IMG/VR virus record: IMGVR_UViG_3300021141_000051
Location: 1 to 25,975 of that record
Direction: 5' to 3' (one strand)
DNA length: 25,975 nt
Source: a virus
Below, in pieces: positions 6,518-18,901 of this stretch; positions within the stretch are counted from its first letter, which is position 1, and every line of letters begins with the position of its first letter. Made by a program: the position numbers and the translations under genes. The notes under the pieces were generated by a model that worked only from the letters and a program-made list of their open reading frames with translations, was not told where the DNA came from and did no database searches.

Positions 6518-6546
6518 TTGACACAAAATTGGTATTTTGTTATAAT
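6518..6546 (+). promoter_or_regulatory. Consensus sigma70 promoter with dyad in spacer
   Basis: Perfect TTGACA (6518-6523), a 17-bp spacer and perfect TATAAT (6541-6546). The spacer region forms an inverted repeat ACAAAAT-TGGT-ATTTTGT running from the -35 to the -10. The start of transcription is expected near 6553, about 20 bases before the metallopeptidase ATG. Confidence 0.85.
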
Positions 6547-6573: not shown

Positions 6574-6975
6574 ATGGAATTGCACGTTGAAGCCGGACCC
6601 AAAACCAAACGGTACATTGAAGCACTGGTTCCTAGCATGTTGACCCAACTTGGGCTTGCTAAAAATCAAAAATTGCTTATGATCAAAGTGGACTCAGATT
6701 TAGAGGAAATGGGCACCACTGTGCCGTTGACAGGACTTGACACTTACTTGGTGGTATTAAAACCCACTAGAAATTTGTATGCACTGGGCGTGACCCTGGC
6801 ACACGAGTTGGTGCATGTGCGACAAATGGCACGAGGCATCCTAAAAATCATGCCCAAAGGCAAAAAATGGAACGGCAAATACTACGGTCGTAATGTGGCA
6901 TATTTGCAACAGCCCTGGGAATTAGATGCCTTTGCCCGGCAAGAAATTGTGTTTCGCAGGGCAATTGAGTTGTGA
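6574..6975 (+). CDS. Small zinc metallopeptidase-like protein (HExxH...E)
   Basis: A 133-residue soluble protein with HELVH (H77, E78, H81) in a helix that continues HVRQMARG. A third potential zinc ligand is E116 in QPWELDAFARQ, a layout seen in short phage and bacterial HExxH peptidases distantly like SprT. Residues 97-110 (KKWNGKYYGRNVAY) sit between the two metal motifs. The substrate is unknown; possibilities include a host factor or a virion precursor. Driven by its own consensus promoter and followed at once by another promoter. The catalytic motif is clear; the family name is less so. Confidence 0.8.
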   Translation: MELHVEAGPKTKRYIEALVPSMLTQLGLAKNQKLLMIKVDSDLEEMGTTVPLTGLDTYLVVLKPTRNLYALGVTLAHELVHVRQMARGILKIMPKGKKWNGKYYGRNVAYLQQPWELDAFARQEIVFRRAIEL

Positions 6976-6981
6976 TTTCGG

Positions 6982-7010
6982 TTGACCAATAATTCCCAAA
7001 CTGCTATAAT
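6982..7010 (+). promoter_or_regulatory. Sigma70 promoter, conserved-spacer class (copy 1)
   Basis: TTGACC (6982-6987), 17-bp spacer AATAATTCCCAAACTGC, TATAAT (7005-7010). The ATG of the next gene is at 7017, about where transcription should start. Confidence 0.85.
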
Positions 7011-7016
7011 TAAGGT

Positions 7017-7250
7017 ATGAAATTAGATACAAATGAAATTTTGCAGTGGACCGGGGCTATTTTTATAGTAGCAGGGCATAGCCTCAATGCAGTGGGGCCA
7101 ACAGCTCATCCTTACAACATTCTTACATTTTTTATTGGGACTATTTTGTTCCTGATTTGGACTGTGCGTGTTGCAAATAAACCACAGATGTTTGTGAATC
7201 TTGTAAGTGTAGCAATTGGGCTAATCGGGCTGGTAAAAGCCTTTGGTTGA
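7017..7250 (+). CDS. Small polytopic membrane protein, probable leaderless mRNA
   Basis: A 77-residue protein with probably three membrane helices (about 10-27, 34-52, 57-75) joined by short loops, e.g. QWTGAIFIVAGHSLNAVG and PYNILTFFIGTILFLIWTV. I cannot assign a family. The ATG lies 7 bp after the -10 box, so the mRNA probably starts at or next to the start codon; AAGG (7012-7015) sits inside the promoter and is unlikely to be transcribed. Its stop codon TGA is part of the next promoter's TTGACC. Confidence 0.7.
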   Translation: MKLDTNEILQWTGAIFIVAGHSLNAVGPTAHPYNILTFFIGTILFLIWTVRVANKPQMFVNLVSVAIGLIGLVKAFG

Positions 7251-7275
7251 CCGAATATTCCCAATTTGCTATAAT
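7247..7275 (+). promoter_or_regulatory. Sigma70 promoter, conserved-spacer class (copy 2)
   Basis: TTGACC (7247-7252), 17-bp spacer GAATATTCCCAATTTGC, TATAAT (7270-7275). The upstream gene's stop codon is embedded in the -35 box. Confidence 0.85.
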
Positions 7276-7306
7276 ATAGCATAGTTTAACAAAAAGGAGT
7301 TCAAAA

Positions 7307-7597
7307 ATGGGTTTAAGATACGATATACTAGGCGAAATGATTACGTTAAACGAGCAAGAAAAACGCCAAGTTGGCATGTATGGTTGCACCGAGTCCGAAA
7401 TGCGTGAAGCAGTGGAATCGTCCAGCACTTTTAAATTCTCTGGCCCTGCAATGGTTGTGGCCAGCATGATGAGTGATGCACAAGAACTGATGGCCTACGA
7501 GCAACCGGACTTTAACACCATTGAAGATCAGCGTCAACTGCTGAATCGTGCTAAATTTGTCTTGTTTGAGTACATCATGGACAAACAAAACGGTTGA
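7307..7597 (+). CDS. Conserved-looking small soluble phage protein, unknown
   Basis: A 96-residue protein, predicted helical, with no motif I recognise. It begins MGLRYDILGEMITLNEQEKR and has a Met/Ser-rich middle (GPAMVVASMMSDAQELM). The start is well defined by AAAAAGGAG about 8 bp upstream. It has its own promoter and its stop TGA lies inside the next promoter's -35 box. Function unknown. Confidence 0.75.
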   Translation: MGLRYDILGEMITLNEQEKRQVGMYGCTESEMREAVESSSTFKFSGPAMVVASMMSDAQELMAYEQPDFNTIEDQRQLLNRAKFVLFEYIMDKQNG

Positions 7598-7622
7598 CCC
7601 GAAATTCCCAAACTGTTATAAT
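7594..7622 (+). promoter_or_regulatory. Sigma70 promoter, conserved-spacer class (copy 3)
   Basis: TTGACC (7594-7599), 17-bp spacer CGAAATTCCCAAACTGT, TATAAT (7617-7622). The previous gene's TGA (7595-7597) is inside the -35 box. Confidence 0.85.
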
Positions 7623-7652
7623 ACTTGTATAGAAACTAAAAAGGATTCCGAA

Positions 7653-8006
7653 ATGACAGCAATAGCAACACAGATCACAGAGCAGTTGGTACAAGACGCA
7701 ACCAACGAAGCAGGTATCCAAGCCCGCTCAGCGGCCAAAGCATTCCACGCCAAGCATGGCGATCGTGATGCTTGTGGCTTTGCTTGGGTCAACGTGTTTG
7801 GCGTACGGTCTAACTCAAAGTTGGGCAAGTGGCTACAGGCCGCGGGCTTCCGTAAGGACTACACTGGCAGTCTTCAACTGTGGAACCCCAGCGGTTTCCC
7901 AACCCAATCAATCAGCATTTTAGAAGCAGGTGCCGAGGCCTACGCTGAGGTACTGAAGACCAAGTTGGGCCTAACACAGGTCTACGCTGGAAGCAGATTA
8001 GATTGA
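7653..8006 (+). CDS. Conserved hypothetical phage protein (CGFAWVNV...LWNPS type)
   Basis: A 117-residue soluble protein. The start at 7653 follows AAAAAGGA (spacing about 7); upstream in-frame starts would run through the promoter. It has a helical N-terminus (1-34), then CGFAWVNVFGVRSNSKLGKW (41-60) and DYTGSLQLWNPSG, a combination I recall from conserved hypothetical proteins of T4-like phages. No catalytic motif is visible. Own promoter upstream, another at its stop. Confidence 0.75.
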   Translation: MTAIATQITEQLVQDATNEAGIQARSAAKAFHAKHGDRDACGFAWVNVFGVRSNSKLGKWLQAAGFRKDYTGSLQLWNPSGFPTQSISILEAGAEAYAEVLKTKLGLTQVYAGSRLD

Positions 8007-8035
8007 TTGACTGATAATTCCCAAACTGCTATAAT
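8007..8035 (+). promoter_or_regulatory. Sigma70 promoter, conserved-spacer class (copy 4)
   Basis: TTGACT (8007-8012), 17-bp spacer GATAATTCCCAAACTGC, TATAAT (8030-8035). It begins on the base after the previous TGA. Confidence 0.85.
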
Positions 8036-8065
8036 ATAAACATAGTAAGAAAAAAAGGAAAAAAG

Positions 8066-8266
8066 ATGTCAAGTTTTGCCGAAGATGTATTTGCAATCAA
8101 TCCCAATATCACAGCAGAGAATGATGTTCTTGACGTGGGATTTGATGTTGTAAAAAAAGCACTGGGATTGAAATCTGCTCGGTACTATTTTTGGTACCAT
8201 GAGGATTTCCCCTCAGATTTGATTAATGAATATTTTTGGTTGCAACAACAGAAAGAGGTAGCATAA
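8066..8266 (+). CDS. Small acidic phage protein, unknown
   Basis: A 66-residue acidic protein, rich in Asp, Glu and aromatics (ARYYFWYHEDFPSDL at 38-52). The ATG is preceded by AAAAAAGGA. It is in an operon with the next gene (one base between stop and ATG) under the promoter at 8007. No family recognised. Confidence 0.7.
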   Translation: MSSFAEDVFAINPNITAENDVLDVGFDVVKKALGLKSARYYFWYHEDFPSDLINEYFWLQQQKEVA

Positions 8267-8267
8267 A

Positions 8268-8744
8268 ATGGGTACACGTTCAAGAATTGGTGTCATGCAT
8301 GGTGACGTTTGCAAATCAGTCTACTGTCACTGGGACGGTTATCTGGAACACAATGGTGTGATATTGCAAGAGCACTATTATGACAGTGCCAAGGCCAACC
8401 ACCTGGTGTCACTGGGCGATGTGTCTTCTTTGAAACGCGATGTTGATTTTCCAGATGGCGAGTTCCATACTTTTGGTTCACCCATGGAAAATGTAACTGT
8501 GTTTTACGGTCGTGACCGTGACGAGACAGGTGCAGAGTTTGCAACAGATCATACCTTTGAAACGTTCTTTGATCGTGCCAACGACTGCGGCGCAGAATGG
8601 TACTACATCATGCGTGACGGTGTCTGGTACGTGGGTAACACACACGAAAATGATGCCAAGTATTACCGCAAGTTGGTATTGTTATTGAAGGCGCTAGTTG
8701 ACGAAATGGAAGTGAGCAAGACCTGGGACACAGTTGACCTGTAA
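8268..8744 (+). CDS. Conserved phage protein of the GTRSRIG / HWDGY type
   Basis: A 158-residue protein. The N-terminus MGTRSRIGV, followed by VYCHWDGYLEHNGVILQEHY (18-37) and a LGDVSSL segment, matches a conserved hypothetical family common in phages, with no known function. The C-terminal third is helical. Translation is probably coupled to the preceding gene. The last codons (Val-Asp-Leu-stop) are themselves the -35 box and spacer of the next promoter, so coding and promoter functions share the same bases. Confidence 0.8.
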   Translation: MGTRSRIGVMHGDVCKSVYCHWDGYLEHNGVILQEHYYDSAKANHLVSLGDVSSLKRDVDFPDGEFHTFGSPMENVTVFYGRDRDETGAEFATDHTFETFFDRANDCGAEWYYIMRDGVWYVGNTHENDAKYYRKLVLLLKALVDEMEVSKTWDTVDL

Positions 8745-8762
8745 TTCCCAAACTGCTATAAT
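8734..8762 (+). promoter_or_regulatory. Sigma70 promoter, conserved-spacer class (copy 5)
   Basis: TTGACC (8734-8739), 17-bp spacer TGTAATTCCCAAACTGC, TATAAT (8757-8762). The -35 box and the first part of the spacer are inside the end of the upstream gene. Confidence 0.85.
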
Positions 8763-8789
8763 ACACACATACACAACAACGGAGCGGGA

Positions 8790-9122
8790 ATGAAACTACA
8801 TATTCACACATATTTTTTTGTCACTCATCTTGACGGACACCTTGCTTTTGGTAAACGTAATAACAACTACTTTTATATTCCCGATGAGAAAACATATAAA
8901 AAACATTTTCGGAAAGATTGGAAATTAATGGAATTTGTTATGACCGAGTTGGGTCCCCGAATACGATTGAATAATAAAAAAATACAAGAGAATCCCAACC
9001 GGTATGGAGAAATAATCTCGTGGCATGAATTAGTTGACAACGACTTTCTTACAGATTATGAGCAGATACAATTACGACGACACGGCGAAATTTGTGATCC
9101 TACTCCGTGTATGTTTAATTGA
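8790..9122 (+). CDS. Hypothetical phage protein, 110 residues
   Basis: A basic, aromatic-rich soluble protein beginning MKLHIHTYFFVTHLDGHL, with a Lys/His/Tyr-rich region at 30-45. The start is fixed by GGAG (8781-8784) five bases upstream. No family recognised. Own promoter; its TGA forms part of the next -35 box. Confidence 0.7.
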   Translation: MKLHIHTYFFVTHLDGHLAFGKRNNNYFYIPDEKTYKKHFRKDWKLMEFVMTELGPRIRLNNKKIQENPNRYGEIISWHELVDNDFLTDYEQIQLRRHGEICDPTPCMFN

Positions 9123-9147
9123 CACAAATTGATTTTGGTAGTATAAT
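9119..9147 (+). promoter_or_regulatory. Consensus sigma70 promoter before 9179 gene
   Basis: TTGACA (9119-9124), 17-bp spacer CAAATTGATTTTGGTAG, TATAAT (9142-9147). It lacks the ATTCCCAA core of the other class but keeps the 17-bp spacing and the embedded stop codon. Confidence 0.85.
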
Positions 9148-9178: not shown

Positions 9179-9451
9179 ATGAACGTCAAAGAAATTAACT
9201 CTGCAATTATGTTTGGTAACTTAACCAATGATCAGTTGTCTAGTGTGATCGATGCAGTGAAGTTTGCTCGTATGCAATTGACCAAACAAAAGACCCGTGC
9301 GTTCGGCATTGGTGACCGGGTAAAGTTTACCAGCAACCGCAATGGCTTGACCTACGTTGGCGATGTTCAAAAAGTCAAAATCAAATTTGTGCTGGTCAAG
9401 ACTCCAGGCGGCCTATTCAATGTACCTGCCAACATGTTGGAAGTGGCATGA
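9179..9451 (+). CDS. Small phage protein with KOW/SH3-like C-terminal barrel
   Basis: A 90-residue protein. Residues 1-37 are helical; 43-90 alternate strands around GDRVKF, then GDVQKVKIKFVLVKTPGG and VPANMLEV, the layout of a small SH3/KOW-like barrel seen in conserved T4-like phage proteins. A nucleic-acid or ribosome role is possible but unproven. AGGAG is at 9168-9172. ATGA overlap with the next gene. Confidence 0.7.
   Translation: MNVKEINSAIMFGNLTNDQLSSVIDAVKFARMQLTKQKTRAFGIGDRVKFTSNRNGLTYVGDVQKVKIKFVLVKTPGGLFNVPANMLEVA

Positions 9452-17254: not shown

Positions 17255-18901
<1,647 letters not shown>

What the first reader, a model, noticed from the sequence alone, without database searches (positions are those of the whole stretch)
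6982..8762. Five tandem sigma70 promoters sharing a conserved spacer
Promoters at 6982, 7247, 7594, 8007 and 8734 all have TTGAC(C/T), exactly 17 bp, and TATAAT. Their spacers share an ATTCCCAA core plus a TG in the same register, e.g. AATAATTCCCAAACTGC and GATAATTCCCAAACTGC. Spacers are usually free to vary, so selection or recent copying is implied. A regulator binding between the boxes, or spread of promoter-gene cassettes by recombination, would both explain it. A CATA/ATAG-like sequence also recurs shortly after the -10.
Basis: seen in the sequence. Interest (0 to 1): 0.76.

Follow-up and report, generated by a model that had tools for sequence, protein, structure and literature searches.

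The report
Jumbo-phage gene joints with clade-specific promoters
A group of giant freshwater phages gives each small accessory gene its own near-perfect promoter whose supposedly free middle stretch is shared across the whole phage clade; genes are shuffled at these promoters, and genes crossing to other clades sit behind the recipient clade's version.

Summary
Five promoters (6982, 7247, 7594, 8007, 8734) share TTGACY, a 17-bp spacer with ATTCCCAA and TG, and TATAAT (0 expected by chance). They are one local view of a genome-wide family: 26-33 such promoters per ~345-kb relative, all on one strand, in at least 120 viral stretches, absent from 399 Burkholderiaceae genomes. The phages are T4-superfamily jumbo phages (terminase 51% identical to PA5oct).

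Each promoter drives one short gene through a ~30-nt leader, and often begins inside the previous gene's stop codon. Homology between relatives breaks at these promoters and gene order is permuted across them, so they act as shuffling joints. The spacer is not merely copied along with the gene. Other clades have identical boxes but different spacer 'dialects'. The same gene is found behind different dialects, nearly always matching its neighbours (60/60 and 29/32), and between clades homology stops at the Shine-Dalgarno. Within dialect A, positions -27 to -25 and -18/-17 change almost only A<->T, which implies selection.

Most likely these are extended early-type sigma70 promoters tuned to RNA polymerase and serving as recombination joints, a variant of T4 PeSL shuffling. 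A clade-specific spacer-reading factor is not excluded. No transcription data exist.

The parts
6982..7010 (+). Dialect A promoter 1: TTGACC-AATAATTCCCAAACTGC-TATAAT; drives ORF 7017-7250
7247..7275 (+). Dialect A promoter 2: TTGACC-GAATATTCCCAATTTGC-TATAAT; stop codon TGA of ORF 7017-7250 lies inside TTGAC; drives ORF 7307-7597
7594..7622 (+). Dialect A promoter 3: TTGACC-CGAAATTCCCAAACTGT-TATAAT; stop TGA of ORF 7307-7597 lies inside TTGAC; drives ORF 7653-8006
8007..8035 (+). Dialect A promoter 4: TTGACT-GATAATTCCCAAACTGC-TATAAT; directly abuts stop TGA of ORF 7653-8006; drives 8066-8266 and 8268-8744
8734..8762 (+). Dialect A promoter 5: TTGACC-TGTAATTCCCAAACTGC-TATAAT; stop TAA of ORF 8268-8744 lies in the spacer; drives ORF 8790-9122
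6518..6546 (+). Flanking 12/12 promoter with another spacer (TTGACACAAAATTGGTATTTTGTTATAAT); drives ORF 6574-6975
9119..9147 (+). Flanking promoter of dialect C type (TAA-TTGACACAAATTGATTTTGG...TATAAT); drives ORF 9179-9451. In relative G004 the matching gene sits behind a dialect A promoter, the junction falling at the -10
6574..6975 (+). Gene family 5, 133 aa, HELVH motif, weak metallopeptidase similarity (DUF6782, below cut-off)
7017..7250 (+). Gene family 6, 77 aa, DUF6552-like
7307..7597 (+). Gene family 2, 96 aa, no match
7653..8006 (+). Gene family 0, 117 aa (phrog_22149, unknown function); in at least 80 viral loci behind promoters of different dialects
8066..8266 (+). Gene family 15, 66 aa, unknown function
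8268..8744 (+). Gene family 7, 158 aa (phrog_1987, unknown function); shares promoter 4 with family 15 here
8790..9122 (+). Gene family 11, 110 aa; absent from G004; in G001 at 192616, about 40 kb from the rest of this array

Best explanation
These are extended, consensus sigma70 promoters of early type that double as joints between single-gene cassettes in a clade of T4-superfamily freshwater jumbo phages. Shown: the clade uses one promoter design genome-wide (GG-TTGACC-AATAATTCCCAATTTGC-TATAAT-A-N4-CATAG, then a ~30-nt leader with AAGGAG and ATG); the upstream gene's stop codon often lies in or next to the -35 box; homology between relatives breaks at these promoters and gene order is permuted across them; other clades keep the boxes but have different spacers; exchanged genes are found behind the local spacer. 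Inferred: transcription by host RNA polymerase soon after infection; spacer maintained by selection for fit to RNA polymerase (bend near -25, beta' zipper and sigma3 at -18/-17); promoters act as short homologous recombination sites inside a clade, while between clades exchange occurs from the common leader/SD to the stop/-35 junction.
For: Genome-wide family: 26-33 PWM sites per genome on + strand and 0 on -; spacing 17 bp for 37/40, 34/39 and 36/42 TTGAC-TATAAT pairs found at 14-23 bp; at least 120 viral stretches with the 21-base pattern. Not host-derived: 0 of 399 Burkholderiaceae genomes, and 0 even of the looser TTGAC-N15-TGN-TATAAT in five genomes. Joints: blastn blocks end at promoters (11-19 ends in promoters against 2.2-2.5 expected for G001); 17/23 against 55/423 non-collinear junctions; family 0 is followed by 15, 4 or 12 in different phages, family 6 by 2 or 26, family 1 by 24, 10 or 21. 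Stop at 0/+4/+11 of TTGAC in 47/141 against 10/800 random positions. Dialects: within-clade spacer identity 0.36-0.54 against 0.24-0.32 between A and the others; dialect tracks TerL clade (A 69-90%, others 54-60%). Spacer goes with genome, not gene: 60/60 and 29/32 concordance, with at least 8 label changes on the gene tree (4 forced by strong branches); homology -64..+49 within a clade against -16..-4 between clades (medians, family 0). Selection: at -26, 42 A-to-T against 0 C/G; at -18, 92 against 7; at -17, 61 against 5; while -29, -23, -22 and -19 take G/C freely. Those positions match known RNAP contact or bend points (PMC5101437).
Against: No transcription start data, so promoter activity and early timing are inferred. 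The A/T rule at -25/-24 and -17 does not hold in dialect B (GG at -25/-24), so one universal RNAP preference cannot explain all dialects. Dialect PWMs come from genomes that include a few of the tested loci, and loci without a clear dialect were left out of the concordance. Synteny breaks may be enriched partly because promoters lie in variable regions anyway. Counts pool reciprocal comparisons and are not independent.
Confidence: 0.72

Rival explanations
1. A clade-specific factor (phage-encoded, injected with the DNA, or a modified host RNAP) reads the spacer, so each clade's promoters form a private regulon and incoming genes must take up the resident spacer.
For: Spacer is a genome-level trait, position-specific and clade-specific while the boxes stay constant. 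T4 offers a precedent for RNAP modification by an injected protein (Alt; PMC2988021).
Against: No candidate factor identified; no sigma70 region 2 match in 10 records. ATTCCCAA outside promoters was not clearly enriched beyond a similar background on both strands. Spacer positions overlap RNAP contacts, leaving little need for another protein. No dyad symmetry in 269 sites.
Confidence: 0.2
2. The shared spacer merely reflects recent copying: promoters duplicated with their genes and homogenised by recombination, without function for the spacer.
For: Cassettes do move and recombine at promoters. G004 has an apparent hybrid of the 8734 and 9119 promoters.
Against: Substitutions are restricted by position and type; promoters of different A genomes are almost as alike as those within one genome although genes are often only 70-85% identical; between clades genes arrive without the spacer.
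Confidence: 0.07
3. PeSL elements as in T4-like phages: composite terminator stem-loop plus early promoter that mediate shuffling.
For: Same role (promoters at swap points of small variable genes) and T4-type terminase. Some relatives carry a terminator hairpin directly before the -35.
Against: A stem-loop with T-run is present before only 9 of 93 core promoters and none of the window's five; instead the upstream stop codon overlaps the -35.
Confidence: 0.1
4. Chance or generic strong promoters; the spacer match is coincidental.
For: None.
Against: 0 expected in the window; family in at least 120 stretches with 0 on the opposite strand.
Confidence: 0.01

Closest known systems
T4 early promoters (Pe)
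   Same: Near-consensus -35, TGn and -10 elements with extra consensus beyond the hexamers, thought to optimise fit to host RNAP (PMC2988021); many small accessory genes of unknown function.
   Different: The shared spacer sequence here is different; several clades with identical boxes have different spacers; no UP-element conservation seen upstream of -35 beyond GG. The -35 to stop-codon overlap is frequent here; it was not examined in T4.
PeSLs (promoter early stem-loops) of T4-like phages, Arbiol et al. 2010; Comeau et al. 2014 (papers not held; known through PMC4503421)
   Same: Repeated early promoters between small variable genes act as exchange points for modular shuffling.
   Different: No stem-loop in the window's five and in only about 10% of relatives; exchange between clades leaves the spacer behind.
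PA5oct / GAP32-type jumbo phages (Arenbergviridae, Mimasvirus)
   Same: Nearest cultured relatives by terminase: 51% and 43%.
   Different: Dialect A is not seen among their listed promoter-like sites. GAP32 shows small sets of its own repeated spacers, not pursued.
Z-element / -17/-18 zipper-binding element and extended -10 of sigma70 promoters
   Same: Constrained A/T positions -18/-17 and TG at -15/-14 coincide with known contacts (PMC5101437, PMC4496709).
   Different: Those sources describe no sequence consensus for most of the spacer; here most spacer positions carry clade-specific information.

Membership tests
sigma70-type promoter | -35 and -10 hexamers near consensus with 16-19 bp spacing | tested here: met
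   11/12 hexamer matches and 17 bp in all five
sigma70-type promoter | transcription start downstream of the -10 | not testable with these tools
   no RNA data
T4-type early promoter | -35, TGn and -10 all present plus extra consensus | tested here: met
T4-type early promoter | active immediately after infection with unmodified host RNAP | not testable with these tools
   timing inferred only
PeSL element | terminator stem-loop adjoining the early promoter | tested here: not met
   0/5 in window, 9/93 in relatives
PeSL element | exchange points of gene shuffling in variable regions | tested here: met
T4-superfamily jumbo phage (PA5oct/GAP32 relatives) | T4 gp17-like large terminase | tested here: met
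   PF03237 hit in 9 of 12 records; 51% to PA5oct. The window fragment itself was not seen to hold a terminase; placed through G004 (80-89% DNA identity)
operator of a dimeric regulator in the spacer | dyad symmetry or covariation | tested here: not met
   269 unique sites: IR score 3.40 against 3.36 +/- 0.05 in column shuffles
host promoter element | present in host genomes | tested here: not met
   0 of 399 Burkholderiaceae genomes; host identity itself only weakly inferred

The most novel reading that the evidence does not exclude
Each jumbo-phage clade has a private promoter 'dialect' written in the -35/-10 spacer and read by a clade-specific factor (an injected or early-made phage protein, or a phage-modified RNA polymerase), so genes acquired from other clades are expressed only after recombining onto the resident spacer.
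Probability: 0.2. Interest if true: 0.82.

Novelty: new variant of a known kind. Interest (0 to 1): 0.6.

Why it matters
The spacer of sigma70 promoters is described as not sequence-specific over most of its length. Here natural selection appears to have fixed different full spacers between identical boxes in sister phage clades, with hundreds of natural variants and clear positional rules; that makes the effect of spacer sequence directly testable. It also shows how accessory genes are traded among giant phages: promoter-to-promoter inside a clade, SD-to-stop between clades, with the recipient's control region retained.

Tried and rejected
Spacer hairpin or inverted repeat (N4-like hairpin promoter): suggested by eye and by a mixed set, rejected on 269 unique class-A sites. 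PeSL composite with terminator as the rule: rejected. Host-derived promoter: rejected for Burkholderiaceae. Phage sigma factor: no sigma70 region 2 match in 10 records; more divergent sigma factors not excluded. Genome-level homogenisation: within- against between-genome spacer similarity differs by only 0.01-0.03. T4 late motif TATAAATA: no marked enrichment. INPHARED search with the 44-nt consensus: only chance-level partial matches. blastn of the region against phages: none. The two primary PeSL papers are not held.

Full report
Observation. Two perfect promoters with another spacer flank the array at 6518 and 9119.

Context. The window is a 25,975-nt virus record. It carries ribonucleotide reductase large and small subunits, an ATP-dependent DNA ligase, a ClpX-like AAA protein, GroEL-like and Hsp20 proteins, and many short unknown genes. 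Relative G004 (346,856 nt) covers most of it at 80-89% identity. Relatives have a T4-type terminase, nearest cultured kin PA5oct (51%) and the GAP32 group (about 43%). The GroEL-like protein is 75% identical to a Polynucleobacter GroEL, a weak hint at a betaproteobacterial host. G001 and G004 lack it.

Genome-wide family. All 138 distinct sites had the 17-bp spacing. In three ~345-kb relatives a matrix finds 26-33 sites on the coding strand and none on the other. The consensus is GG-TTGACC-AATAATTCCCAATTTGC-TATAAT-A-N4-CATAG, followed by a short leader with AAGGAG; the distance from -10 to ATG is usually 27-31 nt. ATTCCCAA is the peak of a graded distribution. The motif is absent from 399 Burkholderiaceae genomes.

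Joints between cassettes. In 47 of 141 clade-A promoters the upstream gene ends exactly at 0, +4 (TGA of TTGAC) or +11 (TAA of the spacer), against 10 of 800 random positions. blastn blocks between the window and relatives stop at promoters: 6977-7276, 7244-8055 and 8003-8764 lie together in G001, but 8734-9106 is at 192616, about 40 kb away. G004 lacks gene 8790-9122, with its junction at the -10, so that the gene downstream of window promoter 9119 sits behind a dialect A promoter there. Families are permuted: 0 is followed by 15, 4 or 12; 6 by 2 or 26; 1 by 24, 10 or 21. Where both neighbours are shared by two phages, 17 of 23 promoter junctions are not collinear, against 55 of 423 other junctions (reciprocal comparisons pooled, so not independent).

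Spacer dialects. The same genes occur in other jumbo-phage clades behind identical boxes but other spacers: B (AgnTTGGncaAatgGtGc), C (ACAAATTGGnTTTGGtG), E (AAnTGGTAAAACCTGTGC). Dialect follows phage clade: terminases of A genomes are 69-90% identical to that of G004, of the others 54-60%. On the tree of family 0 (74 rows) dialect changes at least 8 times, 4 forced by well-supported branches. Yet the promoter's dialect agrees with the other promoters on the same locus in 60 of 60 callable cases, and in 29 of 32 for family 7. For family 0, within-clade homology runs from the -35 (median -64 from ATG) through the next promoter (median +49 after the stop). Between clades it runs only from the Shine-Dalgarno (median -16) to the stop (median -4). 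The family 7 borders are less clear-cut. So the spacer belongs to the genome, not the gene.

Selection. Among 269 unique class-A sites, -27, -26, -25, -18 and -17 change almost only between A and T (for example -26: 42 T, 0 C/G; -18: 92 T, 7 C/G), whereas -29, -23, -22 and -19 freely take G or C. The class filter counts all mismatches alike, so it does not create this. Reviews place an RNAP-induced bend near -25 and beta' zipper/sigma3 contacts at -18/-17 (PMC5101437). Promoters are nearly as similar between A genomes as within one, which argues for clade-wide constraint rather than local homogenisation.

Mechanism. Most likely: host sigma70 RNA polymerase transcribes each short gene from its own strong early-type promoter; the spacer is part of the promoter's strength; repeated promoters give short homology for reshuffling within a clade; between clades only the gene body is retained, joined to resident control DNA through the conserved leader and the stop/-35 overlap. 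Activity, timing and the recombination route are inferred. Why clades differ is open: a clade-specific factor or RNAP modification, or alternative optima reached by drift.

Known and new. Early promoters with extra consensus (T4, PMC2988021) and promoter-mediated shuffling (PeSL, cited in PMC4503421) are known. The stem-loop that defines PeSL is missing in the window's five and in about 90% of relatives' core promoters. As far as searched here, clade-specific spacer dialects retained when genes cross clades were not found described, but most subscription papers are not in the library.

Noticed in passing
window 9119-9147 and 6518-6546: Two perfect promoters of another spacer type (TTGACACAAA...) flank the array; 9119 matches the dialect of relative G417, down to the TAA stop directly before TTGAC, and looks like an imported cassette.
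   Followed up: partly
L356, L048, L058 and others, directly upstream of -35: A recurrent hairpin AAAAGTAGTACT...AGTACTACTTTTTGG (terminator-like) precedes the promoter in a subset of relatives.
   Followed up: partly
G421:C1:137869-140784: The large terminase gene is split into two open frames about 1.3 kb apart (residues 1-174 and 173-521), which suggests an intron or homing-endonuclease insertion.
   Followed up: no
window 17258-18901: Phage GroEL-like chaperonin of 547 aa about 75% identical to Polynucleobacter GroEL; present in G003, absent from G001 and G004.
   Followed up: partly
Cronobacter phage GAP32 (JN882285), e.g. 8793, 10657, 338314, 351473 and 11183, 11575, 14725: GAP32 has at least two repeated spacer sets of its own (TTGACTTCGGTTAGCCCC..., TTGACAAAATGGTTAGAGTACTT...), suggesting that spacer dialects are wider than this clade.
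   Followed up: no
window 6574-6975: Cassette gene with an HELVH zinc-protease motif, only weakly similar to DUF6782 metallopeptidases.
   Followed up: no
L497 (G424) and L498 (G419): Some spacers in other clades are near-perfect inverted repeats (for example AAGGCCCGAAAGGGCCTT); no general covariation was found in dialect A, other dialects were tested only on small sets.
   Followed up: partly
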